A DNA stretch of 64,000 bases from Conexibacter sp. CPCC 205762 (lineage in GTDB: Bacteria; Actinomycetota; Thermoleophilia; Solirubrobacterales; Solirubrobacteraceae). The stretch is taken from positions 1 to 64,000 of the forward strand of contig NZ_JAUTDN010000006.1 in NCBI RefSeq assembly GCF_030646155.1, in the 5' to 3' direction. The translations under genes and the position numbers were made by a program. Positions 47,580-61,792 of this stretch are shown piece after piece (the first letter of the stretch is position 1; the number at the start of each line of letters is the position of its first letter). Below the pieces are notes generated by a model. It searched no databases. It saw only the letters and a program-made list of their open reading frames with translations, and had not been told where the DNA came from.

Positions 47580-48392
47580 TCACGCCTTGCCGTGCCACGG
47601 CAAGACACGCTTCTCCAGCTGCTTGACGAGCTGATCGAGCGCGATCGCGGTGAGGCCGATCACGATGATGCAGAGGACCGCCACGTCGGTCTGCTGGAAC
47701 TTCTTCGTCTGCCATGCGAGCCCGCCGATCCCGGGGATCCCGTCGACGGTCTCGGCCGCGACGATCGTCGTCCAGGCGAAGCCGAGCGCCAGCCGCGTGC
47801 CGGTGAACAGCTGCGGCAGGATCGACGGCAGCGTCACGAAGCGGACGACCTGCCAGCGGCTGGCGCCGAGCGCCCGCGCCGCGTCGACCCGCTCGCGCCT
47901 GATGCCCTCGACGCCCGCCAGCACCGACAGCGCGATCGGCGGGAAGGCGGCCAGGAACAGCAGCCAGATCTTCGACGTGTCCTCGATCCCGAACCAGATG
48001 ATCAGGAGCGAGAAGTAGGCCAGCGGCGGCAGCGAGCGGATGAAGTTGACGTACGGCTCGACGACCAGCCGGAACGGCTTGATCGTCGCCAATGCGAGGC
48101 CGAGCGCGACGCCGAAGACGAGCGCGAAGGCAACGCCGCGGAGGATCCGCCAGAGGCTCGCCCAGAGGTGCTGGTGGAGGTAGTAGCCCGACAGGCCGAC
48201 CTGTCCGTCGTGGACCGATTCGCCCTCCTTCAGCCGCTCCCAGACGCTCGCCGGGCTCGGCACGAAGACCTCCGACCACACTCTCAGCTCGACCACGAGC
48301 CACCAGACGCCGAGCAGGATCGCGAGCGACAGCAGCGGGATCGCAAGCCGTGTCGCCACCCGCCGCACGGAAATCCGCGGAGCATTTTGCAC
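47580..48392 (-). CDS. ABC importer permease (SsuC/TauC-like)
   Basis: 270 residues, six predicted helices. The EAA loop is VDAARALGASRWQVVRFVTLPSILP (~150-175). RSLPPLAYFSLLIIWFGIEDTSK is the TauC/SsuC signature. GTG 48392 is preferred over TTG 48404 or GTG 48485 because it gives the family's length. The AT-rich stretch around 48385-48430 (minus-strand TATTAA) is the probable promoter. First gene of the three-gene importer operon, divergent from the Pro-tail membrane protein. Confidence 0.9.
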   Translation of the reverse strand: MQNAPRISVRRVATRLAIPLLSLAILLGVWWLVVELRVWSEVFVPSPASVWERLKEGESVHDGQVGLSGYYLHQHLWASLWRILRGVAFALVFGVALGLALATIKPFRLVVEPYVNFIRSLPPLAYFSLLIIWFGIEDTSKIWLLFLAAFPPIALSVLAGVEGIRRERVDAARALGASRWQVVRFVTLPSILPQLFTGTRLALGFAWTTIVAAETVDGIPGIGGLAWQTKKFQQTDVAVLCIIVIGLTAIALDQLVKQLEKRVLPWHGKA

Positions 48393-48474
48393 AATCTCGA
48401 CCAAGATAGGCGGGATTAATACAGCATAAGCGGCGGTGGCGCGTACGCAGTCGTCCGTGCGAAGATTCCGGCCG

Positions 48475-49269
48475 ATGGAGACCACAGCTCAGCCGCCTCT
48501 GCTCACGCCGCGGCAGAAGGCCTTCTCACTCGTGGGCATGCTGCTCGTCGCCGTCGGCGCCGTGCTCGCCTACGTCGGCATCTTCCTGCCGTTCTTCTCG
48601 ACGCCAGATCCGGCGGTGACGATCGTCGACAACGCGGCGATCTCCGGCGCGGCCGGGCCCGGCGTGCTGACGATCGTCGGCGCGACCTGCGCGCTCGCGC
48701 TCGCGATCGGGCGCTGGCGGGGTGTGCCGATGCCGGCGTGGATCCCATCGTCGATCGGCGTCTGGGGGCTCTGCTTCGTCGTCTTCTGGGTCGTCGACAT
48801 CAACAACCACGACCTCTACAACGTCGCCTACCGCGGCCCGTACCACGCCTCCAGCTCGGAGCTGTCGCCGGGCTCCGGCATCTGGCTGATCGGCGCCGGC
48901 GCGCTCACGGTCGTGCTCGGCGGCGCCTTCTTCGCGGCGATCCCGCTGAAGCTGATGAAGGCGGTCGCGCCGGCGCCCGCGCGCGTCCCCGCCACCCGGC
49001 CGGACACGTACGGCGGGCCCTATGGCGGCGCCCCGCAGCCGGCGGCGTTCGGCGGGCCCTACGGGGGCGTCCAGGCGGCGCCGTCGCGGCAGCCGCAGCC
49101 GCAGCCGCACCCGGCCTACGGCGCCCCCGCGGCGCCGCCGAGCGCGCCGCCGCCGCGGCTCAGCGCGCCGCCGCCGGCCCAGGAGGCACCTGCCAGAAGA
49201 TGGGCGCCGCCGAGCGCTGCGGGTAGCCTGCCTCCATGGGACGACTCGACGAGACCGACCTCTCACTGA
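48475..49269 (+). CDS. membrane protein with Pro/Ala-rich tail
   Basis: 264 residues. Four predicted helices (about 17-40, 60-80, 88-108, 130-150), with an extracytoplasmic YNVAYRGPYHASSSELSPGSG loop, then an ~90-residue tail rich in Pro, Ala, Gly and Gln with repeated YGGP(Y/A) units. No family recognised. ATG 48475 is preferred over the upstream GTG 48436. Its last 34 bases overlap the PPK2 gene in another frame, so the two are probably co-transcribed. Confidence 0.72.
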   Translation: METTAQPPLLTPRQKAFSLVGMLLVAVGAVLAYVGIFLPFFSTPDPAVTIVDNAAISGAAGPGVLTIVGATCALALAIGRWRGVPMPAWIPSSIGVWGLCFVVFWVVDINNHDLYNVAYRGPYHASSSELSPGSGIWLIGAGALTVVLGGAFFAAIPLKLMKAVAPAPARVPATRPDTYGGPYGGAPQPAAFGGPYGGVQAAPSRQPQPQPHPAYGAPAAPPSAPPPRLSAPPPAQEAPARRWAPPSAAGSLPPWDDSTRPTSH

Positions 49270-50012
49270 CGCTCGACAAGGCGGAGGGCGAGCGGCGGCT
49301 TGCCGAGGAGCAGCGCCGCCTGCTGGCGCTGCGCCTCCAGCTCGGCGGCCTGATCGGCGACGGCTGGCTCGGCCCGCCGCTGCTGGTCCTCTTCGAAGGC
49401 TGGGACGCCTCCGGCAAGGGCGGCGCGATCAGACGGCTGGTGACGCCGCTGGATCCGCGCCACGTGCGCGTCGTGCAGTTCGCCGCGCCCTCCGCCGACG
49501 AGAAGCGCCACCACTTCCTCCAGCGCTTCTGGCCGCCGCTGCCGGGCTGGGGCGGGATGGCCGTCTTCGACCGCTCCTACTACGGCCGCGTGCTGGTCGA
49601 GCGGGTCGAGGGCTTCGCCGACGAGGCCGAGTGGCGGCGCGGCTACGACGAGATCGCGGCGTTCGAGCAGATGCTCCACGTCGAGGGCACGACGATCGTC
49701 AAGTTCTGGCTGCAGATCAGCGACGAGGAGCAGAAGCAGCGCTTCGAGAAGCGGGCGCAGGATCCGCTCAAGCAGTGGAAGCTGACCGACGAGGACTGGC
49801 GCAACCGCGAGAAGCGGCCGCAGTACGAGGAGGCGCTGGAGGAGCTGTTCGCGCGCACCGACCGCCCGGCGGCGCCGTGGACGGTCGTGCCGGCGGAGTC
49901 GAAGGCGTACGCGCGAGTCGCCGTTTTGGAGACTGTCAACGCGGCAATCGTGCGAGCTTTGCGCGCACACGGCAGAGAGCCGATATCTTTCCCTGCACGA
50001 GAAGGGAAGTAG
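49236..50012 (+). CDS. ppk2: polyphosphate kinase 2 family protein
   Basis: 258 residues. Walker A FEGWDASGKGGAI (~52-64) and lid/Walker B FDRSYYGRVLVERVEG (~110-125), then the NREKRPQYEEA and late TRYRVVP-like WTVVPAESK segment. PPK2 proteins move phosphate between polyphosphate and nucleotides (usually polyphosphate to ADP or AMP). Single-domain size; the exact class is not decided here. ATG 49236 overlaps the preceding gene's end. The last 15 bases of the coding region are also the start of a predicted riboswitch for the next gene. Confidence 0.92.
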   Translation: MGRLDETDLSLTLDKAEGERRLAEEQRRLLALRLQLGGLIGDGWLGPPLLVLFEGWDASGKGGAIRRLVTPLDPRHVRVVQFAAPSADEKRHHFLQRFWPPLPGWGGMAVFDRSYYGRVLVERVEGFADEAEWRRGYDEIAAFEQMLHVEGTTIVKFWLQISDEEQKQRFEKRAQDPLKQWKLTDEDWRNREKRPQYEEALEELFARTDRPAAPWTVVPAESKAYARVAVLETVNAAIVRALRAHGREPISFPAREGK

Positions 50013-50125
50013 CCCTGCGACACGGCGCGTTCGTCAACACGGTTCCCCAGATGGGAGCCCGGCGCGCCGGCTGCAGCCCCGCGGCGGGTCAAACCTTCGA
50101 GACCATCGAATCGTTCTCGAAGGAG
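49998..50125 (+). promoter_or_regulatory. probable manganese (yybP-ykoY) riboswitch before terC
   Basis: The aptamer-like part has GAAGGGAAGTAG at 50001-50012 (compare AAGGGGAGUAG), CGTCAACACGG at 50032-50042, and GTCAAACCTTC at 50088-50098 (compare GCAAGACCUUU). GAAGG (50001-50005) pairs with CCTTC (50094-50098) as closing helix P1. Alternatively CTTCGAGA (50095-50102) pairs with TCTCGAAG (50115-50122), which buries part of the AAGGAG ribosome site (50120-50125). The two pairings exclude each other, a natural translational switch. The next gene is a TerC-family protein, the classic target of this riboswitch. Match to the consensus is by eye and imperfect in both loops. Confidence 0.65.
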
Positions 50126-50134
50126 TCCCAATAG

Positions 50135-51085
50135 ATGTTGATCCCCTGGCTCGGCCTGGTCGTGTTCATCGTCGTCTCGCTGACGATCGACCTGCGCGGC
50201 CACGGCGGCAGACCGATGACGCCGCGCAACGCGCTCATCTGGTCGATCGCGTGGACGGCGATCGGCGCCGCCTTCGCGATACTGCTGGCCGTCTTCGACA
50301 GCGGCGAGTCGGCCGGTGAGTACCTCTCCGGCTTCCTGATCGAGAAGTCGCTCTCGCTCGACAACCTGTTCGTCTTCGCGATCCTCTTCTCGTTCCTGCA
50401 GGTGCCGGACACGCAGCGGCTGAAGGTGCTCGTGTGGGGCATCGCGGGCGCGATCGTGCTGCGCACGATCTTCATCCTCGTCGGCGCCGCCGCGCTCGAC
50501 GCCTTCCACGCGACGACCTACGTGCTCGGCGCGCTGCTGCTGCTGACCGCGATCAGAATCGCCAGAAGCGGCGCCGAGGAGATGGACCCGGACAGAACGC
50601 TGATCATGCGCTGGCTGCGCAAGCTGCTGCCGCTCTCCAGAGAGTTCGACGGCGACAAGCTGTTCACGGTCCAGAACGGCAAGAGACTTGCGACGCCGCT
50701 GTTCGCGGCGCTGGCGCTGGTCGCCGCCTTCGACGTGATGTTCGCGATCGACTCGATCCCGGCGATCTTCGCGATCACGCGCGACACCTACATCGTCTTC
50801 GCCGCGAACGCCTTCTCGCTGCTCGGCATGGTGTCGCTCTACTTCCTGCTCGACGGCCTGCTGGACCGCTTCCGCTACCTCCACTTCGGCCTCGCGGTGA
50901 TCCTCGCCTTCGTCGCCGCCAAGCTGCTGCTCGTCGACGTCTGGCACCCGTCCAACGGCATCTCGCTGATCGTGATCGCGCTCGCGCTCTCCGGCGCCGC
51001 GCTCGCCTCGATGATCGTCGAGAGAAGAGAGATGCGGCTGGCGCAGGAGCGCCGCGAGCGCGAGCAGGAGCGCGTCGAGAAGTAG
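50135..51085 (+). CDS. terC: TerC-family membrane protein (Alx/YkoY-like)
   Basis: 316 residues, about eight helices. The acidic motifs FLIEKSLSLDNLFVFAILFSF (~70-90) and AAFDVMFAIDSIPAIFAIT (~190-210) are diagnostic of TerC; in Alx and MeeF-type relatives they take part in manganese export. A charged ~20-residue tail (ERREREQERVEK) ends the protein. AAGGAG lies 9 bases before ATG 50135 and is part of the predicted riboswitch. Many Arg residues in the middle are AGA. Role: metal (Mn) homeostasis, consistent with the leader. Confidence 0.92.
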   Translation: MLIPWLGLVVFIVVSLTIDLRGHGGRPMTPRNALIWSIAWTAIGAAFAILLAVFDSGESAGEYLSGFLIEKSLSLDNLFVFAILFSFLQVPDTQRLKVLVWGIAGAIVLRTIFILVGAAALDAFHATTYVLGALLLLTAIRIARSGAEEMDPDRTLIMRWLRKLLPLSREFDGDKLFTVQNGKRLATPLFAALALVAAFDVMFAIDSIPAIFAITRDTYIVFAANAFSLLGMVSLYFLLDGLLDRFRYLHFGLAVILAFVAAKLLLVDVWHPSNGISLIVIALALSGAALASMIVERREMRLAQERREREQERVEK

Positions 51086-51160
51086 CGCTCAGCGCCCGCA
51101 GACCGACGATCTTCGGGAACACGACGACCAGAGCGCAGCGTCCTCTCGCTACATCGCCGC

Positions 51161-51190
51161 TTGACGGGACCTCCGTGGCCGGCATATAAC
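51161..51190 (+). promoter_or_regulatory. sigma-70-type promoter of the MT-IleRS operon
   Basis: -35 TTGACG (51161-51166), 18-base spacer, -10 TATAAC (51185-51190). The best-matching promoter in the window. Transcription would begin near 51197, giving a ~180-base leader. Confidence 0.75.
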
Positions 51191-51196
51191 ACGAGT

Positions 51197-51379
51197 TGGC
51201 GCTGCGTCCAGCGGCGCCGGGGGAACGATCCGAGGAGCAGCTCGTGGAAGGTGCCGACCGAGTCCGCAAGCACAGGGGGCCGGCAGGTTCGAGCTGCGTG
51301 AAAACGATGTCGGGGGACGACGGCACGGGCGCACGACGCGTCACGGTCGCTCCTGCCCGGAGGACGAGGTGAGCGGTTG
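51197..51379 (+). ncRNA. structured 5' leader of the MT-IleRS operon (class unknown)
   Basis: GCAGCTCG (51237-51244) pairs with CGAGCTGC (51290-51297); inside it TGCCG (51252-51256) pairs with CGGCA (51281-51285), a nested two-helix structure around a 24-base purine-rich loop. The leader is long for this genome, where most genes have short or no leaders. I cannot assign it to a known riboswitch class. Confidence 0.4.
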
Positions 51380-52399
51380 ATGACTGACGTCCAGCCAACG
51401 CTGAAGGCCGAGCAGGAGGGCGCCGGCGACGGCGTTCGCCCGGTCTTCGAGTTGTTCGAGGGCTTCGCGCTGACGAGCGTGCTCGCTTCGTTGGAGCGCG
51501 CGGGGCTGCTCGAGCGGCTGGAGGGCGGCGGTCTGCCTGCCGACGCCGACGACGGTCCCGACGGACTGCCGCTGGCCACGCTCCGGTATCTTGCTCAACG
51601 TGGCATCGTTGAGGAGAGCGACGGAACCTACAGTCTTTCGGACCGCGGTCGCGCGATCGTCAAGGACAAGGGCTACCTCGTCTGGCTGCAGGGCGGCTAC
51701 GGCCACGTTCTCGCCGCGCTGGGCGATTTCTCTACCGGCGCCAGACGCTACGGGAGCGACGTGATCCGCGACGGTCGCTGGGTCGCCGACGGCTCCGCCC
51801 TGATCGGGCGCGACGACGTCTCGCCGCACGCCACCGCGGTGCTCGAGACGATCGACTTCTCGCACGTCGTCGACCTCGGCTGCGGCAACGCCCGCTTCCT
51901 GATCGCCGCCGCCAGACGGTTCGGCGTCAGCGGCGTCGGCGTCGACCTCGCGCCGGAGGCGTGCGAGGACGCCGAGCACGCGATCGCCGCCGCCGGCCTC
52001 AGCGATCGCCTCACCGTCCGCTGCGGCGACGCCGGCGACCTCGACGCGATCCCGGAGCTGGAGCGCTCCGATCTCGCCGTCGCCTTCTTCCTGCTGCACG
52101 AGATCTTCGAGCACGGGCGTGACGCGCTGATGGCCTATCTGCGCAAGCTCGGCACGCTGATGCCGAAGGGCGCGCACATGCTCGTCGCGGAGGTGCAGCC
52201 GGCAAGCGGCGCACCGGAGGAGCGCTGGCGGCCAGAATTCACGCTCTTGCACGCGATCATGCGTCAACAGCTGCTGACGGAGCAGGGCTGGCACGAGGCG
52301 TTCACCGAGGCCGGCTGGAGCCGCCACGAGGTCGTCGAGCTGGGCCTGCCGGGCGCGATCCTGCTGCTCTACCGCAACGAGAACGGAGCGGAGGCGTGA
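51380..52399 (+). CDS. class I SAM-dependent methyltransferase with winged-helix N-terminus
   Basis: 339 residues. N-terminal ~130 residues are helical with a winged-helix look (LFEGFALTSVLASLERAGLLERL ... LSDRGRAIV), then a Rossmann methyltransferase: motif I VVDLGCGNARFLI (~160), motif II GVDLAPEACEDAE, an acidic GDAGDL, and AFFLLHEIFEHG. This layout is seen in O- and C-methyltransferases that act on keto acids, polyketides and phenols. The acceptor is unknown. ATG 51380 has GAGGTGAG ~6 bases upstream. The cupin gene's GTG overlaps its stop. First gene of the operon after the promoter at 51161. Confidence 0.85.
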   Translation: MTDVQPTLKAEQEGAGDGVRPVFELFEGFALTSVLASLERAGLLERLEGGGLPADADDGPDGLPLATLRYLAQRGIVEESDGTYSLSDRGRAIVKDKGYLVWLQGGYGHVLAALGDFSTGARRYGSDVIRDGRWVADGSALIGRDDVSPHATAVLETIDFSHVVDLGCGNARFLIAAARRFGVSGVGVDLAPEACEDAEHAIAAAGLSDRLTVRCGDAGDLDAIPELERSDLAVAFFLLHEIFEHGRDALMAYLRKLGTLMPKGAHMLVAEVQPASGAPEERWRPEFTLLHAIMRQQLLTEQGWHEAFTEAGWSRHEVVELGLPGAILLLYRNENGAEA

Positions 52400-52794
52400 G
52401 CGCGCAGATCACCAGACGCGCCGGCGTCCTCATCACCCAGGGCCTGCCGGTGCCGGTCGAGGTCGACGGCCACCACGGCCCGACGCCGTTCATGGTCACC
52501 CCGGAGACGCTGCCGGGCACGCCCTTCAGCATCGCCGTCGTCGACGCCGCGAGACTGGTCGGCGCGCCGCACGCGGACCTGCACGTCCACGACGACCACG
52601 ACGAGCTGTACCTCGTCGCGACGCCGGGGCTGCGCTTCACGGTCGAGACGGAGGAGGAGCGGATCGAGCTGAACTCGCCGGCGACGATCTCGATCCCCGC
52701 CGGCGTCAGGCATCGGTTGATCTGCCACGAGGTCGAGGGCGACCACTGCCCCTTCCTCGGGATCCTGGTCGAGAAGGGCACGCTCCCCGCGTAG
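52396..52794 (+). CDS. cupin-domain protein
   Basis: 132 residues, single cupin barrel. The metal-binding motif is DLHVHDDHDELYLV (~60-73: two His and a Glu), and the second motif IPAGVRHRLICHE (~100) supplies another His. GTG 52396 overlaps the methyltransferase stop by 4 bases. Such stand-alone cupins are isomerases, dioxygenases or sugar/keto-acid binders. Coupled translation with the methyltransferase suggests they act in sequence on the same compound. Confidence 0.82.
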   Translation: MSAQITRRAGVLITQGLPVPVEVDGHHGPTPFMVTPETLPGTPFSIAVVDAARLVGAPHADLHVHDDHDELYLVATPGLRFTVETEEERIELNSPATISIPAGVRHRLICHEVEGDHCPFLGILVEKGTLPA

Positions 52795-52817
52795 GGGGGG
52801 AGAGGGGCACGAGGGGA

Positions 52818-53789
52818 ATGGAAGCTTCGGCGATCAAAGGAACGACGACGGAAGCCGAGACGCGCCGGCCACGGCTGCGGCTCGCCGGTCCGGGCAGGCG
52901 CGGACGCCTGCGCGTCGCGATCATCGGCACCGGCAACATCGGCACGGACCTGCTGCTGAAGGTGCAGCGCTCCGAGCTGCTCGACTGCGAGCTGTTCGCC
53001 GGGCGCAGCAGCGGCTCGGCCGGGATACGCCGGGCCCAGGCGATGGGCGTCGAGACCTCCGACCGCAGCATCGACGCGCTGCTGGAGGAGCCGGAGCGGT
53101 TCGACCTCGTCTTCGACGCCACCTCGGCGGTCGACGCGCGCCGCCACTACGAGCTGCTGAAGCCGCACGGCATACCGGTGATCGACCTGACGCCGGCGAA
53201 GCTGGGGAAGATGTGCGTGCCGGCGCTCAACCTCGCCGACTGCGTCGGCGAGCCGAACCTCTGCATGGTCACGTGCGGCGGGCAGGCGGCGGTGCCGCTC
53301 GCCCGCACCGTGATGGAGACGCACCCGCAGGTCGACTACGTCGAGATCGTCTCGACGAGCGCGTCGGCCTCCGTCGGGCCGGCGACGCGGATCAACATAG
53401 ACGAGTACCTGGCGACCACCGAGGCGGCGCTGAGCCACTTCAGCGGCGTCGGGCGCTGCAAGTCGATCCTGCTCGTCAACCCGTCGACGCCGCCGATCAT
53501 GATGCAGAACACGGTCTTCGCGAAGGCCGACGAGACCGACCTGCCGGCGCTCACGACGGCGGTCGAGCAGATGGTCGAGCGGATACAGCGGTACGTGCCG
53601 GGCTACCGGCTCGTCGTGCCGCCGCTCTACGAGAACGGGCGCATCGCGATGACGGTCCAGGTCGCGGGCGCCGGTGACTACCTGCCGGCCTATGCCGGCA
53701 ACCTGGACATCATCACCTGCGCCGCGGTCGCCGCGGCGGAGGAGAACGCGCGCGTCCTGCTGCAGGACGCCGCGTCAACGCAAGCCTGA
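52818..53789 (+). CDS. mhpF: acetaldehyde dehydrogenase (acylating), MhpF-like
   Basis: 323 residues. The NAD loop VAIIGTGNIGTDLL (~36-49) is preceded by a ~30-residue charged extension absent from most MhpF. The catalytic Cys lies in NLCMVTCGGQA (~150), and IVSTSASASVGPATRINIDEYLATT is the matching conserved block. The enzyme converts acetaldehyde + CoA + NAD to acetyl-CoA, or the reverse, and channels acetaldehyde to or from its aldolase partner, encoded next. GAGGGG lies just before ATG 52818. Confidence 0.92.
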   Translation: MEASAIKGTTTEAETRRPRLRLAGPGRRGRLRVAIIGTGNIGTDLLLKVQRSELLDCELFAGRSSGSAGIRRAQAMGVETSDRSIDALLEEPERFDLVFDATSAVDARRHYELLKPHGIPVIDLTPAKLGKMCVPALNLADCVGEPNLCMVTCGGQAAVPLARTVMETHPQVDYVEIVSTSASASVGPATRINIDEYLATTEAALSHFSGVGRCKSILLVNPSTPPIMMQNTVFAKADETDLPALTTAVEQMVERIQRYVPGYRLVVPPLYENGRIAMTVQVAGAGDYLPAYAGNLDIITCAAVAAAEENARVLLQDAASTQA

Positions 53790-53823
53790 ACGGTTCTTGG
53801 GGGAACAAGGGGGAACCAGACAG

Positions 53824-54888
53824 ATGGCACAGATCTTGATCAGCGATCCGACGTTGCGAGACGGCAACCACGCCGTCCAGCACCGCCTGACCGCAGAGCA
53901 GATCCGGCGCTACGCGGCAGCGGCCAACGCCGCCAGAGTCGCGATCGTCGAAGTCGGGCACGGCAACGGGCTGGGGGCGTCCTCGCTGCAGGTCGGCGAG
54001 GCGCTGCTGAGCGACGAGGAGATGCTGCGGATCGCGCGCGAGGAGCTGTCCGACGTGAAGCTGGGGGCGTTCGGCATCCCCGGCTTCGCGACGATGCGGC
54101 GTGACCTCGATCTCGCGATCGACGTCGGCGTCGACGTCTTCCGGGTCGGCGCGCACTGCACCGAGGCCGACCTCACGGAACGTCACATCACCTACCTGCG
54201 CGAGCGCGACAAGGAGGTGTACGGCGTCCTGATGATGTGTCATATGGCGACGCCGGAGCAGCTCTGCGAAGAGGCGCTCAAGATGAAGTCCTACGGCGCC
54301 CAGGGGGTCGTCGTGATGGACTCGGCCGGCGCCTTCCTGACGCGCGACCTGCAGGACCGAATAGCGCGCATGGTGGACGCGACGCAGATCGCGATCGGCT
54401 TCCACGGGCACAACAACCTGTGCCTGGCGGTCGCCAACTCGGTCGCGGCGGTCGACGCCGGCGCGACGATCGTCGACGGCACGGCGCGGGGATTCGGCGC
54501 CGGTGCCGGCAACACCGCGCTCGAGGTGCTGGTCGCGGTGCTGGCCGAGCTTGGCCACGACACGGGGATAGACCTGTACAAGGTGCTCGACGCGGCCGAC
54601 CTGGCCGACGCCGAGCTGGTGCAGCAGCTGCCGACGACGGACTCGGTCGGCATCGTCAGCGGGCTCGCGGGCGTCTTCTCCGGCTATTCGAAGCCGGTGC
54701 GGCGGATCGCGAGAGACTTCGGGATCGACCCGCGCGACGTATTCTTCGCGCTCGGCAGACGGGACGTGATCGCCGGCCAGGAGGACGTGATCCTCGAGGT
54801 CGCGATGGCGCTGCGAGATGCAGTGGAGAACCAGGGGCTGGAGCAGCAGGACGACGAGATCAGCGATGCCGAGGGGGACAAGGCATGA
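53824..54888 (+). CDS. mhpE: 4-hydroxy-2-oxovalerate aldolase, MhpE/DmpG-like
   Basis: 354 residues, DRE-TIM metallolyase. The start ISDPTLRDGNHAV holds the metal and substrate residues (R-D), and GFHGHNNL the metal-binding HxH. A C-terminal communication domain (from ~275, QQLPTTDSVGIVSGLAGVFSGY) is the part that binds the acetaldehyde dehydrogenase. It splits or joins pyruvate and acetaldehyde (4-hydroxy-2-oxopentanoate). The stop overlaps the hydratase ATG. Confidence 0.93.
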   Translation: MAQILISDPTLRDGNHAVQHRLTAEQIRRYAAAANAARVAIVEVGHGNGLGASSLQVGEALLSDEEMLRIAREELSDVKLGAFGIPGFATMRRDLDLAIDVGVDVFRVGAHCTEADLTERHITYLRERDKEVYGVLMMCHMATPEQLCEEALKMKSYGAQGVVVMDSAGAFLTRDLQDRIARMVDATQIAIGFHGHNNLCLAVANSVAAVDAGATIVDGTARGFGAGAGNTALEVLVAVLAELGHDTGIDLYKVLDAADLADAELVQQLPTTDSVGIVSGLAGVFSGYSKPVRRIARDFGIDPRDVFFALGRRDVIAGQEDVILEVAMALRDAVENQGLEQQDDEISDAEGDKA

Positions 54889-55724
54889 CTCCGCACACGA
54901 TCACGAGGACCTTTGACGGCGACCGCCCGGCGCTCCTGGAAGCCGCCGCGCTGACGCCACATCACGAAGCGCTGGCGCGGCTGCTGTGGCACGCCGAGCT
55001 GCGCGGGGAGGCGATCGAGCCGCTCAGCGGCACGTTCCCGGACCTGACGCTCTGGGACGCCTATCGAATACAGGCGATCGGCCGCACCCTGCGGACCGCC
55101 GAGGGCGAGGAGCTGCGCGGCTGGAAGGTCGGCCTGACGAGCGTGGCGATGCAGGAGATGATGGGCGTCGACCAGCCGGACTCCGGCTACCTGCTGGAGT
55201 CGATGGTCGTCCACAGCGGCGCGCAGCTGCGCGCCTCGCGCTTCATCCAGCCGCGCGTCGAGGCCGAGATCGCCTTCCTGCTGAAGTCGCCGCTGGAGGG
55301 CCCCGGCGTCACCCGCGAGGAGGTGCTGGAGGCGACGCACGCGCTCGCGCCGGCGCTCGAGGTGATCGACTCGCGCATCAGCGACTGGCGGATCGGGATC
55401 GTCGACACGGTCGCCGACAACGCCTCCTCGGGCATGTGCGTGATCGGCGACTGGGAGCCGGCCGAGGACGTCCAGGCGGAGACGCTCGGCGTCTCGCTGG
55501 CGGTCGGCCCGGAGCTGGTGCGCGGCCGCGGCGACGCGGTCCTCGGCCACCCGGCCGAGCCGGTCGCGTGGCTGGCGCGGATGCTCGCCGAACAGGGCGA
55601 GCGGCTGGAGCCGGGCGACATCGTGATGCCGGGCTCGGTCTCCCGCGCCGTCCCGATCGCGCAGGGCCAGACCGCCTACGCGACCTTCGACCGTCTGGGC
55701 GAGGTGAGCGTCGGCCTTGTCTGA
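54885..55724 (+). CDS. mhpD: 2-keto-4-pentenoate hydratase, MhpD-like
   Basis: 279 residues (family ~265). Conserved: DAYRIQAIGR, GWKVGLTSVAMQEMMGVDQPDSGYLL, RVEAEIAFLL (metal ligands), ALEVIDSRISDWRIGIVDTVADNASSG and GDIVMPGSVSRAVPI. It hydrates 2-oxopent-4-enoate to 4-hydroxy-2-oxopentanoate, or the reverse. A ~20-residue N-terminal extension is present. ATG 54885 overlaps the aldolase stop; the AlaX-like TTG start lies inside its last codons. Confidence 0.92.
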   Translation: MTPHTITRTFDGDRPALLEAAALTPHHEALARLLWHAELRGEAIEPLSGTFPDLTLWDAYRIQAIGRTLRTAEGEELRGWKVGLTSVAMQEMMGVDQPDSGYLLESMVVHSGAQLRASRFIQPRVEAEIAFLLKSPLEGPGVTREEVLEATHALAPALEVIDSRISDWRIGIVDTVADNASSGMCVIGDWEPAEDVQAETLGVSLAVGPELVRGRGDAVLGHPAEPVAWLARMLAEQGERLEPGDIVMPGSVSRAVPIAQGQTAYATFDRLGEVSVGLV

Positions 55725-56550
55725 GAGCACCACTGGCACCCGCGAGTTCCCACCTGCCTCTGGCGATCAGGGCCAGACGTGGAACTCGCAAGGCGCAGCC
55801 CGGGCGCCTGCGGACGCACCGCCGTACCAGGTCAACGCCTATCAGCGCTCCTTCTCCGCGCGCGTGCTGCGTGCGGAGGGGACGGCGGTGCAGCTGGAGG
55901 GGAGCGCGCTCTTCCCCGGCGGCGGCGGGCAGCCGGCCGACCGCGGCACGCTGCGCGACGGCGACGCCGTCTGGCAGGTGACCGGCGCCAAGCTGGCGCG
56001 TGACGACGCCGATCCGGCCTTCCCGGCGGCCGGCGTCTGGACGCTGCTCGACAGAGCCGCGCCGGCTGCCGGCAGCGACCTCGAAGGCGAGGTCGAGTGG
56101 GAGCGGCGCTACCAGCTGATGCGCACCCACACCGCGCTCCACATCCTCTGCGCCGTCGTCTGGCGCGACTACAGAGCGAAGGTGACCGGCGCCAACATGG
56201 AGCCGCTGCGCGGCCGCATGGACTTCGAGTTCGACGCGCTCTCAGGCGAGTTCGTGGCCGAGCTGGAGGAGAAGGTCAACGCCGAGGTGGCCGCCGCGCG
56301 GCCGACGCGCGTCGACTTCCTGACACGCGCCGAGGCCGACCAGGACCCCGAGCTGATCCGCAACAAGGTCAGCCTGCTGCCGCCCTCGATCACCGTCGTC
56401 CGCGTCGTCGGGATCGATGGGCTGGACCTGCAGGCGGACGGCGGCACGCATGTCGCCAACACACGCGAGGTGGGCCGGATCGCCCTCCCCTCGTACAAGA
56501 GCAAGGGCAAGATCAACAAGCGCGTTGAACTCATGCTGACAGGGGGCTGA
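55717..56550 (+). CDS. AlaX-like alanyl-tRNA editing protein
   Basis: 277 residues. After a ~40-residue hydrophilic start comes the alanyl-tRNA synthetase second additional domain: FPGGGGQPADRGTL (~65), THTALHILCAVV (~130, the zinc HxxxH), and at ~248 ADGGTHVANTREVG. In most AlaX proteins that block begins with Cys (C-G-G-T-H); here it is Asp. The family clears wrongly charged tRNA, typically Ser-tRNA(Ala). TTG 55717 overlaps the hydratase by 8 bases; IleRS follows after 4 bases. A stand-alone editing protein between a catabolic or biosynthetic cluster and IleRS is unusual. Confidence 0.85.
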   Translation: MSESTTGTREFPPASGDQGQTWNSQGAARAPADAPPYQVNAYQRSFSARVLRAEGTAVQLEGSALFPGGGGQPADRGTLRDGDAVWQVTGAKLARDDADPAFPAAGVWTLLDRAAPAAGSDLEGEVEWERRYQLMRTHTALHILCAVVWRDYRAKVTGANMEPLRGRMDFEFDALSGEFVAELEEKVNAEVAAARPTRVDFLTRAEADQDPELIRNKVSLLPPSITVVRVVGIDGLDLQADGGTHVANTREVGRIALPSYKSKGKINKRVELMLTGG

Positions 56551-56554
56551 AATC

Positions 56555-59500
56555 ATGCGCGAGCCGCACCGGCCAGTTGACGGACGACCCGACTTCCCGC
56601 AGATCGAGGAGCGGGTGCTGGAGCGCTGGCGCGACGAGCGCACCTTCGAGCGCGCGCTCGCCCAGCGCGAGGACGGCGAGGTCTTCAGCTTCATCGAAGG
56701 TCCGCCGACCGCCAACGGCAACCCCGGCTCGCACCACGTCCTGCTGCGCTCGTTCAAGGACTTCTACATGCGCTACCGCACGATGTGCGGCTACCGCGTG
56801 CCGCGCAAGGCCGGCTGGGACTGCCACGGCCTGCCGGTCGAGCTGGAGGTCGAGAAGCAGCTCGGCTTCGACTCCAAGCGCGAGATCGAGGAATACGGGA
56901 TCGCGGCCTTCAACGAGCGCTGCCGCGAGTCCAACCAGCACTACATCGGCGCCTGGGAGCGGATGACCGAGCGGGTCGGCTTCTGGATCGACCTCGAGAA
57001 CGCCTTCCAGACCGGCACGCCCGAGTACATCGAGTCGGTCTGGTGGTCGCTGCACGAGCTGTGGGACAGAGGGCTGATCTACGAGGGCCACAAGGTCGTC
57101 CCGTACTGCCCGCGCTGCGGCACCGGCCTCTCCTCGCACGAGGTCGCGATGGCCTATCGCGAGATCGAGGACCTGACCGCGACGGTCAAGCTGCCCGTCG
57201 TCGAGCGCCGCGGCCCGCTGCAGGTCGGCGACGCCTTCCTGATCTGGACGACGCAGCCGTGGACGCTGTTCGCCAACTGCGCCGTCGCGATCGCGCCCGA
57301 CGTCCGCTACGTGCGCGCCCGCCGCGGCGACGAGGTGTTCGTGCTGGCGGAGGAGCGCGTCGCCGCGACGCTCGGCGAGGAGGGAGTCGAGATCCTCGAC
57401 CGCTTCCCCGGCCGCACGATCGTCGACGCCCGCTACGAGCCGCCGTTCGACCTGCTGACCGACCACGGCCCGCGCAGTCACACGCTGCTCGCCGCCGACC
57501 ACGTCGGACTCGACAGAGGCACCGGCCTCGTCCACACGGCGATGGCGTTCGGCGAGGAGGACTTCGTGCTGTGCGAGCGGCACGGGATCCCGCTCGTCAA
57601 CCCGGTCCGCGAGGACGGCACCTACGACGAGCGGGTCACCGGCTGGGAGGGCGAGTTCGTCGGTGACGCGACGCCGAGAGTGGTCGAGGCGCTGCGCGCC
57701 GCCGGCAAGCTGCTGGAGGCCGAGCCGTTCATCCACTCGCACCCGCACTGCTGGCGCTGCGACTCCAAGCTGCTCTACTACGCGAAGGAGAGCTGGTACA
57801 TCGCCACGCGCGACCGGCGCCACGACATGCTGCGGCAGAACACGCGCATCGACTGGCGTCCCGAGCACGTGCGCGACGGCCGCTTCGGCAACTGGCTGCA
57901 GGGCAACGTCGACTGGGCGCTCTCGCGCGACCGCTACTGGGGCACGCCGCTGCCGATCTGGGAGTGCTCCTCGGCCGGCTGCGACGCGCGTCACTGCGTC
58001 GGCTCGATCGAGGAGCTGAGAGCGCTCACCGGCGCGCTCCCGAGAGACCTCCACCGGCCCTACATCGACGAGGTCACGTGGGCCTGCTCGGTCGACGGCT
58101 GCGGCGGCGAGATGCGCCGTGTCAGAGCGACGATCGACACCTGGTACGACTCGGCCTGCATGCCGTTCGCGCAGTTCCACTACCCGTTCGAGGGTGTGGA
58201 GCAGTTCAGAGCGGAGTTCCCGCCCTCGTTCATATGCGAGGGGATCGACCAGACGCGCGGCTGGTTCTACACCTCGCTCGCGGTCTCGACGCTGCTGTTC
58301 GACGACATCCCCTTCCAGACCGCCGTCTGCGTCGGCCACGTGCAGGACAGAAACGGCCACAAGATGTCGAAGTCCAGAGGCAACGCGGTCGACCCGTGGG
58401 ACGTGCTCGAGCGCCACGGCGCCGACGCCTTCCGCTGGTACTACCTCGCCTCGCAGCAGCCGTGGGCCGGCTACCGCTTCTCCAGAGAGGCGGTCGCGGA
58501 GGCGGTCAAGCAGGTGCTGCTGCCGCTGTGGGAGATCTACCGCTTCTACGTCCTCTACGCGAACATCGAGCGCTTCGACGCGCGCGCCGCGGCCGCCGCG
58601 CCGCCGCCGTCGCGCCGCTGCGAGATGGACCGATGGGCGCTGTCGCGGCTGCAGACGGTCGTGCGCGAGATGCGCGAGCGGATCGACGCCTTCGACGCCC
58701 ACGGCGCGACCCACCTCGCGCTCGACTGGCTCGACGAGCTGTCGAACTGGTACGTGCGCCTGTCGCGCCCGCGCTTCTGGGACAGCGCGACCGCCGCGCC
58801 CGCGCTGGCGACGCTGCGCGAGTGCCTGCTGACGACGGTCAAGCTGCTCGCGCCGGCGCTCCCGTTCGCAACCGAGGAGCTGTACGAGAACCTCGTCGGC
58901 GGCGTCAACGGGACGTTCCGCGCGGAGCCGAGATCGGTCCATCTGTGCGACTACCCGCAGCCCGACGCGGCGCTCGTCGACGCGCGCCTGGAGCGCGACA
59001 TGGCGTTCGCGCGCGAGACGGTCGAGCTGGGCCGCTACGCGCGCGACAGAGCGAGAGTGAAGACGCGCCAGCCGCTGCGGCGCGCGATCGTCTGCGCGCC
59101 GGCGAGAGCCGATCGCGAGGCGGTCGAGCGGATGCAGGCGCTGATCTGCCGCGAGCTGAACGTCAAGCAGCTCGAGGTCGTCGCCGACGAGCTGGTGCTG
59201 GAGCGGCCGCTGGTGCTGCCGAACCTGCAGAAGCTCGGCCCGCGCTGCGGCCGCGACATGGGCACGATCGTCTCGTCGCTGCGCACGCGCGACGGCGACG
59301 AGGCGCTGCAGGCGCTGCGCGAGCACGGCGTGCTGACCGTCCGCGTCGGCGACCCGGGCGATCTGCACGACCCGCCGCGCACCTACGCGCTGGCCGAGAA
59401 CGACCTGATGGTCAGAAGAGTCCCGCGCGAGGGGCTGGTGCTGTCCGGCAGAGGCGCGCGGCTCGGGCTCGTCGTCGCGATCGACACGCTGCTCGACGAC

Positions 59501-59764
59501 TCGCTGAGGCGCGAGGGCTGGGCGCGCGAGATCGTGCGCGCGGTGCAGGCGCAGCGCAGAGCGGCCGGCGTCGGCGTGACCGACCGGATCGAGCTGCAGC
59601 TCGGCGGCAGCGCGGAGCTGCTGGCGGCGGCGCGCGAGCACGAGACGTATGTCGCAGCCGAGACGCTCGCACCGGTCGTCGTCTACGACGGCGGCGAGGG
59701 CGCGGGCGCCGAGGTCGACGGCAAGCCGCTGACCGTGCGCGTCGCCGTGATGACGCCGGCCTGA
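56555..59764 (+). CDS. ileS: isoleucyl-tRNA synthetase (type 2)
   Basis: 1069 residues, class I synthetase of the eukaryote-like type 2 found in many actinobacteria (mycobacterial IleS is ~1040). The HIGH-equivalent is NPGSHHVLL (~50), KMSKS is HKMSKSRGNAVDP (~605). An editing domain lies between, with WTTQPWTLFANCAVAI and GTGLVHTA. Zinc Cys pairs: CPRCG and CSSAGC. The tail carries the anticodon-binding and C-terminal domains. ATG 56555 lies 4 bases after the AlaX-like stop. Type 2 enzymes are often naturally resistant to mupirocin-like inhibitors. AGA clusters in the 58,000-58,500 part. It may be the only ileS or a second, special copy; the window cannot tell. Confidence 0.95.
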   Translation: MREPHRPVDGRPDFPQIEERVLERWRDERTFERALAQREDGEVFSFIEGPPTANGNPGSHHVLLRSFKDFYMRYRTMCGYRVPRKAGWDCHGLPVELEVEKQLGFDSKREIEEYGIAAFNERCRESNQHYIGAWERMTERVGFWIDLENAFQTGTPEYIESVWWSLHELWDRGLIYEGHKVVPYCPRCGTGLSSHEVAMAYREIEDLTATVKLPVVERRGPLQVGDAFLIWTTQPWTLFANCAVAIAPDVRYVRARRGDEVFVLAEERVAATLGEEGVEILDRFPGRTIVDARYEPPFDLLTDHGPRSHTLLAADHVGLDRGTGLVHTAMAFGEEDFVLCERHGIPLVNPVREDGTYDERVTGWEGEFVGDATPRVVEALRAAGKLLEAEPFIHSHPHCWRCDSKLLYYAKESWYIATRDRRHDMLRQNTRIDWRPEHVRDGRFGNWLQGNVDWALSRDRYWGTPLPIWECSSAGCDARHCVGSIEELRALTGALPRDLHRPYIDEVTWACSVDGCGGEMRRVRATIDTWYDSACMPFAQFHYPFEGVEQFRAEFPPSFICEGIDQTRGWFYTSLAVSTLLFDDIPFQTAVCVGHVQDRNGHKMSKSRGNAVDPWDVLERHGADAFRWYYLASQQPWAGYRFSREAVAEAVKQVLLPLWEIYRFYVLYANIERFDARAAAAAPPPSRRCEMDRWALSRLQTVVREMRERIDAFDAHGATHLALDWLDELSNWYVRLSRPRFWDSATAAPALATLRECLLTTVKLLAPALPFATEELYENLVGGVNGTFRAEPRSVHLCDYPQPDAALVDARLERDMAFARETVELGRYARDRARVKTRQPLRRAIVCAPARADREAVERMQALICRELNVKQLEVVADELVLERPLVLPNLQKLGPRCGRDMGTIVSSLRTRDGDEALQALREHGVLTVRVGDPGDLHDPPRTYALAENDLMVRRVPREGLVLSGRGARLGLVVAIDTLLDDSLRREGWAREIVRAVQAQRRAAGVGVTDRIELQLGGSAELLAAAREHETYVAAETLAPVVVYDGGEGAGAEVDGKPLTVRVAVMTPA

Positions 59765-59808
59765 GGCGCCCGCACCGGCGGCCGGCGGCCGGCCGCCGGC
59801 GCTGAAGT

Positions 59809-59846
59809 CTGCGGCTTTTGCCCCGCATCGGAGGGCAAGAGCCGCA
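59809..59846 (+). terminator. hairpin terminator after ileS
   Basis: TGCGGCTTTTGCCC (59810-59823) and GGGCAAGAGCCGCA (59833-59846) pair with one mismatch; loop of 9. No T-tract follows. A second GC palindrome (GCCGGC units, about 59780-59800) precedes it. Probable end of the operon begun at 51.2 kb. Confidence 0.6.
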
Positions 59847-59874
59847 AGCTTCCGGTGTGTGAGAGGTCGCACGG

Positions 59875-59908
59875 TTGGGTGTGACATGGATCGGTGTAAC
59901 ATCTGCGC
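59875..59908 (+). promoter_or_regulatory. promoter for a leaderless message
   Basis: -35-like TTGGGT (59875-59880), 16-base spacer, -10 TAACAT (59897-59902) ending 6 bases before ATG 59909. No Shine-Dalgarno. The spacing puts the transcription start on the A of the ATG. Confidence 0.55.
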
Positions 59909-61792
59909 ATGTTCGCCGTCATCGAAGACCCTGCCGGCGGCGCGGCGATAGGAGAGGTGCTGATCGCCTCCTCGGCCGCGCTGGTCCTGACCATCGGCCT
60001 GCTGGTGCTCGGGATGGGGCACCGCACCGGCCGCGTCGCCCTGCTCGGCAACCTCGCCGCGTTCACCGAGCGCCGCAGCGGCCTGCCCGGCTGGGTCGGC
60101 CTGCCGTCCGCGATCGCCGGCGCCTCGCTGCTGGCGGCGGTCTTCGGCATGTACTGGGACATCTCGCTGCACATCGACGTCGGCCGTGACGCCGGCCCGC
60201 TCGCCAACCCGGCCCACTACTTCATCCTCGGCGGCCTGTTCGGCATCTTCGCCGCCGGCGTCGTCGCGATCGTGCTGCCGGCGGGCAAGCCGAGCAGCTC
60301 CTCGATCGAGATCGGCGAGAACTGGTACGCGCCGCTCGGCGGCCTGCTGATCTGCGCCGCCGCGGCGTTCGCGCTGCTCGGATTCCCGCTCGACGACGTC
60401 TGGCACCGGCTCTTCGGCCAGGACGTGACGCTGTGGGGCCCGACCCACCTGATGCTGATCGGCGGCGCCTCGCTGACGCTCGTCGGCATGGCGGTGCTGC
60501 TGGTCGAGGGTCAGCGCTTCAACAAGGCCGCCGCCGAGGCGCGGATAGCGGCGAGAGTCGTCGGCCGCCGCGGCGCGGACACCGAGGCCGGCTGGGTCGA
60601 CCTCACCCGCCGCACCGCGCTCTGCGGCGCCTTCCTGCTCGGCCTCTCGACCTTCCAGGGCGAGTTCGACTTCGGCGTGCCGCAGTTCCGCTTCGTCTTC
60701 GGCCCGCTGCTGATCATGCTCGCCGCGGGCGCCGGCATCGTCGCCGTGCGGCTGTGGGCCGGGCGCGGCGCGGCGCTTGGCGCGGTCGGCTTCTTCCTGC
60801 TCGTGCGCGGCCTGCTGGCGCTGCTCGTCGGGCCGGTGCTGGGGGAGACGACGCCGCACTTCCCGCTCTACGTCGCGGAGGCGCTGGTCGTCGAGGCGAT
60901 CGCGCTGGCGGCGCCGACGCTGCTGCGGCGGCCGCTCGCCTTCGGGCTCGTCTCCGGGCTCGGCATCGGCACGATCGGCCTCGCCGCCGAGTGGGGCTGG
61001 ACGCACGTCTGGTCGCCGATCCCGTGGAGCTCGAACCTGCTGCCGGAGGCGATCGTCTTCGGCCTCCCGGCTGCCATCGCCGGCGCGCTGATCGGCGCCT
61101 GGATCGGAGACCGCCTCGCGCTGGAGGCGCGCGACCACGACCGCCGGCTCGACGTCGCGGCGCTCGTCGCCGCGCTCGGGGCGACCGCGCTGGTCGGGAT
61201 CGCGCTCTACAAGCCGGGCGTCGAGGGCGTCAGCGCGCAGGTGACGCTGACCAACGTCCAGAGCGGCCCCGACCGCACCGTCGAGGCGGTCGTGCGGATG
61301 CAGCCGGCCGACGCGGCCGACGACGCCGAGTACCTGACCGCGACCGCCTGGCAGGGCGGCGGCTTCATCGTCGACAGGCTGCAGCGGATCGACGAGGGCG
61401 TCTACCGCACGACGCAGCCGATCCCGGTTCACGGCGGCTGGAAGGCGCTGATCCGCATGTCGCGCGGCAACACGCTCAGCGCGATCCCGATCTTCCTGCC
61501 CGAGGACCGCGCGATCCCCGCCAGAGGGGTGCCGGCGCCGCAGTCGTTCACGCGCACCTTCGTCGCCGACCACAGACTGCTGCAACGCGAGCAGAAGACG
61601 GCGCAGGGCTGGCTGTGGGCGGTCGCCTACACCGTCGTCGGGCTGATCTTCCTGTCGCTGCTGGCGCTGATGGCGTGGGCGCTGCGGCGGCTGTCGGATG
61701 CCGCCGGCGAGCCGCCGGTGCCGCCGGCCGAGCGCCGCGCCGCAGCCAGCGCGCCCGCGCCGCGACCGACGCCGCAGCTGGGCGGGGCGTGA
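59909..61792 (+). CDS. large polytopic membrane protein with conserved His/Asp-rich loops
   Basis: 627 residues, about 12-13 helices (first at ~15-37), then a ~130-residue extracytoplasmic beta-like domain (~440-570), a last helix (~575-600) and a Pro/Ala tail. Two His/Asp-rich blocks look functional: YWDISLHIDVGRDAGPLANPAHY (~83-105) and WHRLFGQDVTLWGPTHLM (~160-178), the kind of pattern that binds metal in copper or oxidase assembly proteins. I do not recognise the family for certain. Probable leaderless start. The hydrolase gene follows 4 bases after its stop. Confidence 0.75.
   Translation: MFAVIEDPAGGAAIGEVLIASSAALVLTIGLLVLGMGHRTGRVALLGNLAAFTERRSGLPGWVGLPSAIAGASLLAAVFGMYWDISLHIDVGRDAGPLANPAHYFILGGLFGIFAAGVVAIVLPAGKPSSSSIEIGENWYAPLGGLLICAAAAFALLGFPLDDVWHRLFGQDVTLWGPTHLMLIGGASLTLVGMAVLLVEGQRFNKAAAEARIAARVVGRRGADTEAGWVDLTRRTALCGAFLLGLSTFQGEFDFGVPQFRFVFGPLLIMLAAGAGIVAVRLWAGRGAALGAVGFFLLVRGLLALLVGPVLGETTPHFPLYVAEALVVEAIALAAPTLLRRPLAFGLVSGLGIGTIGLAAEWGWTHVWSPIPWSSNLLPEAIVFGLPAAIAGALIGAWIGDRLALEARDHDRRLDVAALVAALGATALVGIALYKPGVEGVSAQVTLTNVQSGPDRTVEAVVRMQPADAADDAEYLTATAWQGGGFIVDRLQRIDEGVYRTTQPIPVHGGWKALIRMSRGNTLSAIPIFLPEDRAIPARGVPAPQSFTRTFVADHRLLQREQKTAQGWLWAVAYTVVGLIFLSLLALMAWALRRLSDAAGEPPVPPAERRAAASAPAPRPTPQLGGA

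What the first reader, a model, noticed from the sequence alone, without database searches (positions are those of the whole stretch)
51161..59846. Seven-gene operon: methyltransferase, cupin, MhpF/E/D enzymes, AlaX-like protein and IleRS
Seen: one strong promoter, then seven genes with overlaps or 4-35 base gaps, ending in a hairpin. Known: MhpF, MhpE and MhpD interconvert acetyl-CoA, acetaldehyde + pyruvate, 4-hydroxy-2-oxopentanoate and 2-oxopent-4-enoate. Inference: run in the synthetic direction and methylated at C3, they would give 3-methyl-2-oxopent-4-enoate, the keto acid of 4,5-dehydroisoleucine, an isoleucine mimic that IleRS can charge. A linked IleRS and editing protein would then give self-protection. 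The alternative is an ordinary meta-cleavage lower pathway placed beside a housekeeping ileS. I know of no description of this set.
Basis: partly seen in the sequence, partly recalled or inferred. Interest (0 to 1): 0.85.

Follow-up and report, generated by a model that had tools for sequence, protein, structure and literature searches.

The report
Isoleucine-mimic operon with spare IleRS
A soil bacterium, Conexibacter, carries an operon that looks able to build an amino acid resembling isoleucine, next to a second, divergent copy of the enzyme that loads isoleucine for protein synthesis; if confirmed, it would be a new way to make, and survive, a protein-poisoning amino acid.

Summary
Seven co-directional genes (51377-59764), between a promoter and a strong hairpin, encode a C-methyltransferase, cupin, MhpF, MhpE, MhpD, AlaX-like protein and IleRS. 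The order is kept in 7 of 7 Conexibacter genomes examined (AlaX missing in 2); the set was not seen elsewhere in the samples searched. The third (induction by aromatics) could not be tested. Key addition: the cupin is related to MarH/StnK3, which epimerise C3 of beta-methyl alpha-keto acids made by MarI/StnQ1 methyltransferases. The operon methyltransferase belongs to that keto-acid family and keeps both metal histidines. A known methylation-epimerisation pair is thus joined to enzymes for a C5 keto acid. A review states that E. coli IleRS uses (2S,3S)- but not (2S,3R)-dehydroisoleucine. The aldolase has F/F at two positions that set C4 stereochemistry in BphI; 31 of 31 other aldolases checked lack this. 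Product, direction and self-protection are inferred. No aminotransferase was found beside it, genus-wide presence is unusual for an antibiotic cluster, and IleRS active-site changes are not statistically enriched.

The parts
51161..51190 (+). Promoter TTGACG-N18-TATAAC
   Evidence: 10-of-12 promoter upstream in 7 of 7 genomes, at -172 to -223 in six and -93 in G006; 5 of 500 random pieces as good
51377..52399 (+). SAM-dependent alpha-keto acid C-methyltransferase (TTG start, or ATG at 51380)
   Evidence: PDB matches 8ftv 2.8e-22, 8r4z 1.2e-17, 4m6x (MppJ) 1.3e-17; H241 and H292 align with the metal histidines 244 and 296, invariant in 7 of 7
52396..52794 (+). MarH/StnK3-like cupin, probable C3 epimerase
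   Evidence: 6j4b 2.7e-19, 7eqk 1.1e-17; Foldseek titles name MarH and an epimerase/lyase; H63, H65, E70, H106 invariant in 7 of 7
52818..53789 (+). MhpF, acetaldehyde dehydrogenase (acetylating)
   Evidence: TIGR03215 360.9 bits, cut-off 282.25; TCGGQA motif kept in 7 of 7
53824..54888 (+). MhpE, 4-hydroxy-2-oxovalerate-type aldolase with F83/F285
   Evidence: TIGR03217 351.7 bits, cut-off 286; F83/F285 in 7 of 7 operon copies, absent in 31 of 31 others
54885..55724 (+). MhpD-like hydratase/dehydratase
   Evidence: TIGR03220 227.9 bits, below cut-off 408.8; 56% identical to the mhpD beside the C67 mhpF-mhpE pair
55717..56550 (+). AlaX-like trans-editing protein (present in 5 of 7 genomes)
56555..59764 (+). 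Second isoleucyl-tRNA synthetase (type 2)
   Evidence: TIGR00392 824.9 bits; second copy at C53:106532-109693; operon copies form one clade, 100/100
59800..59860 (+). Strong hairpin after the operon, no T-run
   Evidence: -38.3 kcal/mol, z -5.0

Best explanation
The operon is a dedicated pathway to a C3-methylated, isoleucine-like C5 alpha-keto acid and, after transamination by an unlinked enzyme, to an isoleucine analogue. Proposed steps: MhpF reduces acetyl-CoA to acetaldehyde; MhpE adds it to pyruvate giving 4-hydroxy-2-oxopentanoate (probably 4R, from the F83/F285 pair); MhpD run backwards dehydrates it to 2-oxopent-4-enoate or its dienol; the methyltransferase methylates C3; the MarH-like cupin inverts C3 to S, the configuration of L-isoleucine; a branched-chain aminotransferase gives (2S,3S)-2-amino-3-methylpent-4-enoate (4,5-dehydroisoleucine). 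The second IleRS, with the AlaX-like protein in 5 of 7 strains, lets the producer keep translating by excluding or editing the analogue. Shown: the genes, their conservation, the extra ileS, protein families, metal-ligand and pocket residues. Inferred: direction, substrates, product, stereochemistry, protection.
For: Six genes (seven in 5 of 7) kept together in 7 of 7 genus genomes. Methyltransferase related to keto-acid C-methyltransferases with both metal histidines (role from passages of PMC10502145). Cupin related to MarH; in streptonigrin and maremycin clusters the methyltransferase and cupin genes are neighbours and the cupin StnK3 turns (R)- into (S)-beta-methyl keto acid (passages of PMC4742848). 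E. [quoted passage not shown] The IleRS is an extra copy in 6 of 7. Separate mhp genes lie elsewhere in the own genome. The aldolase pocket differs from 31 of 31 others in the way that altered C4 stereochemistry in BphI (passages of PMC3962088). Genes are under purifying selection by pN/pS below 1.
Against: No aminotransferase in the operon or among ten flanking genes scanned, unlike marG/stnR. Presence in 7 of 7 genomes is unlike patchy antibiotic clusters. MhpF and MhpD normally run in the degradative direction (established knowledge). MhpD scores below its curated cut-off. Operon-only IleRS changes are not enriched in the active site: core 7/56 vs 22/323, p 0.17; core plus editing 9/75 vs 20/304, p 0.14. 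The GXHH mupirocin-resistance signature is in both IleRS copies. AlaX is missing in 2 of 7. Cupin pN/pS against G006 is 0.91. No product has been seen.
Confidence: 0.5

Rival explanations
1. Same logic, but the hydroxyl is kept: 4-hydroxy-3-methyl-2-oxopentanoate and then a 4-hydroxyisoleucine stereoisomer or its lactone, with MhpD acting on a side branch.
For: MhpE alone with the methyltransferase and cupin would give it. The F83/F285 pair, which should matter for C4 configuration, only has meaning in the product if the hydroxyl is kept.
Against: MhpD is kept in 7 of 7, which a hydroxylated end product would not need.
Confidence: 0.2
2. Ordinary lower meta-cleavage pathway (MhpD-E-F run in degradation) that happens to sit with unrelated genes and a spare ileS.
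For: MhpF and MhpE score above their curated cut-offs and keep catalytic motifs. MhpD is 56% identical to a catabolic-type paralog.
Against: No ring-cleavage gene in the operon or among the ten flanking genes scanned; a separate mhpD-F-E set exists at C67; methyltransferase and cupin have no role in it; the association with IleRS is kept in 7 of 7; the aldolase pocket is changed. G001 has no second full-length MhpE, so there the operon copy could also serve catabolism.
Confidence: 0.1
3. IleRS works in biosynthesis, like SbzA, handing isoleucine or the analogue from tRNA to another molecule.
For: The sbz cluster holds an IleRS-like sbzA, an MppJ-like methyltransferase sbzD and a cupin sbzM; SbzA transfers isoleucine from Ile-tRNA (passages of PMC6331615 and PMC9113183).
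Against: No adenylation, carrier-protein or acceptor-building gene in the operon; the operon IleRS is full length, keeps GSHH and KMSKS and scores above the IleRS cut-off.
Confidence: 0.08
4. An alternative route to isoleucine itself, via reduction of 3-methyl-2-oxopent-4-enoate.
For: The methylated keto acid differs from that of isoleucine by one double bond (chemistry).
Against: Citramalate synthase and threonine dehydratase are present over cut-off in 7 of 7 genus genomes; no reductase in the operon; does not explain a second IleRS.
Confidence: 0.04

Closest known systems
marI-marH-marG (maremycin) and stnQ1-stnK3-stnR (streptonigrin) cassettes
   Same: Keto-acid C-methyltransferase gene directly followed by a small cupin epimerase gene (passages of PMC4742848)
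   Different: Those act on indolepyruvate from tryptophan and carry their own aminotransferase; here Mhp enzymes would supply a C5 keto acid, there is an IleRS and no aminotransferase
sbz cluster (SB-203208, altemicidin)
   Same: IleRS paralog, MppJ-like methyltransferase and a cupin in one actinomycete cluster (passages of PMC6331615 and PMC9113183)
   Different: 18 genes with AMP ligases and carrier proteins; its cupin is a cysteine oxidase; SbzA is a transfer enzyme; no Mhp enzymes
mhpDEF / dmpEFG meta-cleavage lower pathway
   Same: All three enzyme families, catalytic motifs kept
   Different: No ring-cleavage genes, changed aldolase pocket, linked to methylation and IleRS
BphI L87W/Y290F engineered aldolase
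   Same: Bulky aromatic at position 87 and F at 290 (passages of PMC3962088)
   Different: Natural enzyme, F rather than W at 87; activity untested
Furanomycin
   Same: Isoleucine analogue charged by IleRS as mode of action (passages of PMC3662646)
   Different: Feeding studies point to a polyketide route from propionate and acetate

Membership tests
Metal-dependent alpha-keto acid C-methyltransferases (SgvM, MarI, MppJ, 2-ketoarginine methyltransferase) | Full-domain sequence similarity | tested here: met
   8ftv 2.8e-22, 8r4z 1.2e-17, MppJ 1.3e-17; below the 2-ketoarginine equivalog cut-off, so not that enzyme
Metal-dependent alpha-keto acid C-methyltransferases (SgvM, MarI, MppJ, 2-ketoarginine methyltransferase) | Two metal-binding histidines (SgvM H244, H296) | tested here: met
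   H241 and H292 align and are invariant in 7 of 7. That 8ftv/8ftr is SgvM is inferred: histidines sit at 244 and 296 of the chain; the held paper text does not contain the code 8FTR
Metal-dependent alpha-keto acid C-methyltransferases (SgvM, MarI, MppJ, 2-ketoarginine methyltransferase) | Methylation of C3 of an alpha-keto acid | not testable with these tools
   needs an assay
MarH/StnK3 cupin epimerases | Sequence similarity to MarH | tested here: met
   2.7e-19 over residues 8-124; Foldseek 35-36% identity, query model pLDDT only 63.7
MarH/StnK3 cupin epimerases | Three His and one Glu of the cupin metal site | tested here: met
   H63, H65, E70, H106 invariant in 7 of 7 and aligned with MarH; roles recalled
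MarH/StnK3 cupin epimerases | Gene next to the C-methyltransferase | tested here: met
   7 of 7 genomes
MarH/StnK3 cupin epimerases | Partner aminotransferase gene in the cassette | tested here: not met
   absent from the operon in 7 of 7 and from ten flanking genes in the window
Meta-cleavage lower pathway | Linked to ring-cleavage or upstream aromatic genes | tested here: not met
   none in the operon or among ten flanking genes scanned
Meta-cleavage lower pathway | 4S-type aldolase pocket (L87, Y290 of BphI) | tested here: not met
   F/F in 7 of 7
Cluster with a self-resistance aminoacyl-tRNA synthetase | Second, divergent synthetase besides a housekeeping copy | tested here: met
   6 of 7 genus genomes; G002, 77% complete, shows one; separate clades
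Cluster with a self-resistance aminoacyl-tRNA synthetase | Synthetase resistant to the cluster's product | not testable with these tools
   GXHH motif is uninformative, as both copies have it
AlaX trans-editing proteins | tRNA_SAD domain and AlaXM curated cut-off | tested here: inconclusive
   tRNA_SAD 38.7 bits over cut-off 24; AlaXM 220.7 below 300
AlaX trans-editing proteins | HxxxH and CxxxH zinc ligands | tested here: not met
   H138, H142, H245 kept; the Cys position is D241 in 5 of 5 operon copies, C in the AlaRS and AlaX chains aligned; hence called AlaX-like only

The most novel reading that the evidence does not exclude
Conexibacter makes (2S,3S)-4,5-dehydroisoleucine, or a stereodefined 4-hydroxyisoleucine, from acetyl-CoA, pyruvate and SAM by turning a catabolic aldolase set to synthesis and adding a MarI/MarH-type methylation-epimerisation pair, and carries a dedicated IleRS for it. 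Boldest form: because the set is in every genome of the genus sampled, the IleRS may load the analogue on purpose, making it a regulated second 'isoleucine' in the cell's own proteins.
Probability: 0.35. Interest if true: 0.9.

Novelty: new variant of a known kind. Interest (0 to 1): 0.78.

Why it matters
If right, this is a compact and testable route to an isoleucine analogue whose (2S,3S) form is reported to enter proteins. It would show a degradative enzyme trio turned to synthesis, provide a natural aldolase with a pocket change like one engineered in BphI, and supply an IleRS that may tell isoleucine from a near-perfect mimic, which would be useful for antibiotic discovery, resistance studies and genetic-code work.

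Tried and rejected
Resistance read from the GSHH signature of the operon IleRS: rejected. GXHH is present in 36 of 36 rows that show this region, housekeeping copies included (a 37th row, L057, is cut before it).

Clustering of operon-specific IleRS changes in the active site: tested, not significant (core 7/56 vs 22/323, p 0.17; editing 2/19 vs 27/360, p 0.65). The same measure for Conexibacter housekeeping copies against other housekeeping copies gave 1/57 core and 7/352 outside.

Known RNA element (for example a T-box) in the leader: none at E<=1 in window 50000-61000, none at E<=0.5 in L051, L046, L049, L050. RNAalifold gave a leader structure with covariation 0.356 against a shuffled mean of 0.178, but the structure was derived from the same 6 sequences and the window leader folds no better than shuffles (z 0.69). 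I claim nothing from it.

Isoleucine bypass: weakened. Defence system: of the seven proteins only the methyltransferase matched padloc models (mad2 1.3e-14, MTase_II 9e-6), over its SAM-binding part; not pursued.

Operon relatives outside the genus: the methyltransferase profile matched 6 of 399 class genomes at E<=1e-15 (5 Conexibacter; G048 5.9e-20) and 2 of 396 phylum genomes at E<=1e-12 (own; G631 2.1e-23). About 20 kb around the G048, G631 and G008 hits hold none of the other six genes at E<=1e-3. Plasmids: 20 records match the methyltransferase, none over 80% of its length; no match for the cupin. The one genome-contig scan gave 6 loci, 5 of them operon loci.

Print: ten searches. None listed a description of this gene set, aimed at it, listed 2 papers, neither on it. 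Most subscription journals are not held.
Full report
WHAT IS THERE. The window lies in a 6.1-Mb assembly (G000, contig C75). Its nearest relatives include named Conexibacter records: L039 Conexibacter sp. CPCC 206217, L041 C. arvalis DSM 23288, and MAGs L040, L042, L043. Seven genes on + run from 51377 to 59764 with gaps of -8 to +34 bases. They encode a SAM methyltransferase, a 132-aa cupin, MhpF, MhpE, MhpD, an AlaX-like protein and an IleRS (MhpD, AlaX-like and cupin score below curated cut-offs of their best NCBIfam or Pfam family). A promoter stands at 51161-51190 and a hairpin at 59800-59860; the consensus scan listed neither.

CONSERVATION. The seven proteins were searched in loci of six other genomes of the genus: the order is the same in all, 7 of 7 with the window. 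AlaX is missing in G001 and G002. In G002 the IleRS is cut by a contig end and its remainder lies on another contig. The promoter is kept in 7 of 7. Upstream, terC is found in 6 of 7 (G002's contig starts too near to tell) and an ORF that looks like a flavin monooxygenase (by its first residues, recalled; not searched) lies between terC and the operon in 4 of 7; downstream neighbours differ (crude gene caller). pN/pS between the window and three relatives is 0.18-0.61, except 0.91 for the cupin against G006. Outside the genus, 54 relatives held no full-length methyltransferase above 32% identity, though many give partial matches in the SAM-binding part. The profile matched only Conexibacter and one weak relative in 399 class genomes and the own genome and one weak relative in 396 phylum genomes. 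The operon-type aldolase had no match at E<=1e-95 in the 395 other genomes of the phylum sample. Samples overlap and are parts of larger groups.

THE SECOND ILERS. The genome has two full-length ileS genes, 49% to 52% identical. Six of 7 genus genomes show two; G002 (77% complete) shows one. Of 54 other relatives 51 show one match and 3 (G008, G023, G033) two, some fragmentary. The 7 operon copies form one clade (100/100), apart from the 6 Conexibacter housekeeping copies. With outgroups the operon clade sits inside Solirubrobacterales, beside IleRS of family f3, on a stem of 0.77, while the housekeeping copies sit with family f1. It is an old, fast-diverged paralog or a transfer within the order, not a recent duplicate. 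It keeps GSHH, KMSKS and the residues aligned with T. thermophilus P46, D85, W518, Q554, W558 and with editing-site N237, H319, D328 (roles recalled). Operon-only changes include Y47 to I/S, T234 to Q/M in the editing motif, and positions 593, 595, 596 before KMSKS. These are suggestive only: the enrichment test is not significant. GXHH raises mupirocin resistance of IleRS2 (passages of PMC10485003), but both copies have it.

METHYLTRANSFERASE AND CUPIN. The methyltransferase matches 8ftv (2.8e-22), 2-ketoarginine methyltransferase 8r4z (1.2e-17) and MppJ (1.3e-17). Its H241 and H292 align with histidines 244 and 296 of 8ftv, the zinc ligands of SgvM (passages of PMC10502145), and are invariant in 7 of 7. 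I take 8ftv/8ftr to be SgvM from these positions; the held text does not give the code. The cupin matches 6j4b (2.7e-19) and 7eqk (1.1e-17). Foldseek titles name 6j4b/6j4d as MarH, an epimerase for maremycins, and 7eqk as a non-heme iron epimerase/lyase. The query model is poor (pLDDT 63.7), but the sequence match does not depend on it. In streptonigrin and maremycin clusters the methyltransferase and cupin genes are neighbours; StnQ1 makes (R)-beta-methylindolepyruvate and StnK3 inverts it to (S) (passages of PMC4742848). The S form has the spatial arrangement of C3 of L-isoleucine if vinyl or ethyl replaces indole (my reasoning). E. [quoted passage not shown] An epimerase is therefore what would turn the methylated product into an isoleucine mimic.

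THE MHP GENES. In the own genome separate mhpF-mhpE genes lie at C75 near 174 kb and an mhpD-F-E set at C67. Six of 7 genus genomes have at least one further full-length MhpE (40-44% identical); G001 has none. F83 and F285 replace BphI L87 and Y290 in 7 of 7 operon copies; both own paralogs have L and Y, as do 28 of 29 further actinobacterial aldolases, the other being V/T (the 29 loci held, of 57 listed matches). So 31 of 31 non-operon copies lack F/F. BphI Y290F loses C4 stereocontrol; L87W/Y290F and L87N/Y290F cleave only the 4R isomer (passages of PMC3962088). Positions were mapped through DmpG with an offset of one that I derived from Tyr 290/291. F is not W, so 4R specificity is a prediction.

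HOW IT PROBABLY WORKS. Acetyl-CoA to acetaldehyde (MhpF); with pyruvate to 4-hydroxy-2-oxopentanoate (MhpE); dehydration (MhpD); C3 methylation; C3 inversion (cupin); transamination by an unlinked enzyme; protection by the second IleRS, with the AlaX-like protein in some strains. Families, residues, linkage and conservation are shown; direction, substrates, product and protection are inferred. Citramalate synthase and threonine dehydratase are present over cut-off in 7 of 7 genus genomes, so a plain isoleucine route is unlikely.

WHAT IT RESEMBLES. marI-marH is the closest chemistry. The sbz cluster is the closest design, with an IleRS paralog, an MppJ-like methyltransferase and a cupin (passages), but it makes a different compound. 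Furanomycin is the closest mode of action (passages of PMC3662646). The ten searches named under Tried and rejected listed no description of this set.

LIMITS. No experiment; one genus, seven genomes; no aminotransferase among the operon or ten flanking genes scanned; and presence in every sampled genome of the genus, which suggests a steady physiological role rather than a dispensable antibiotic.

Noticed in passing
51197-51379, and leaders in L045, L046, L047, L049, L050: The transcript would have a 5' leader of roughly 130-190 bases in 6 of 7 genomes, partly conserved; a predicted stem would cover the ribosome-binding site, but the evidence is weak.
   Followed up: partly
55717-56550, residue D241: The AlaX-like protein has Asp where aligned AlaRS/AlaX chains have the zinc-binding Cys, in 5 of 5 operon copies.
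   Followed up: partly
L047:8108-9625, L045:12052-14253, L048:9447-12110, L050:19-336: An ORF resembling a flavin monooxygenase by its first residues lies between terC and the operon in 4 of 7 genomes, not in the window; not searched.
   Followed up: no
G555 (two IleRS matches): A more distant actinobacterial genome also shows two type-2 IleRS matches at E<=1e-200; context not examined.
   Followed up: no
41483-42430 and 47580-48485: Upstream of the operon lie an aldo/keto reductase and an ABC-transporter permease gene, conserved in G004 only among the loci compared.
   Followed up: no
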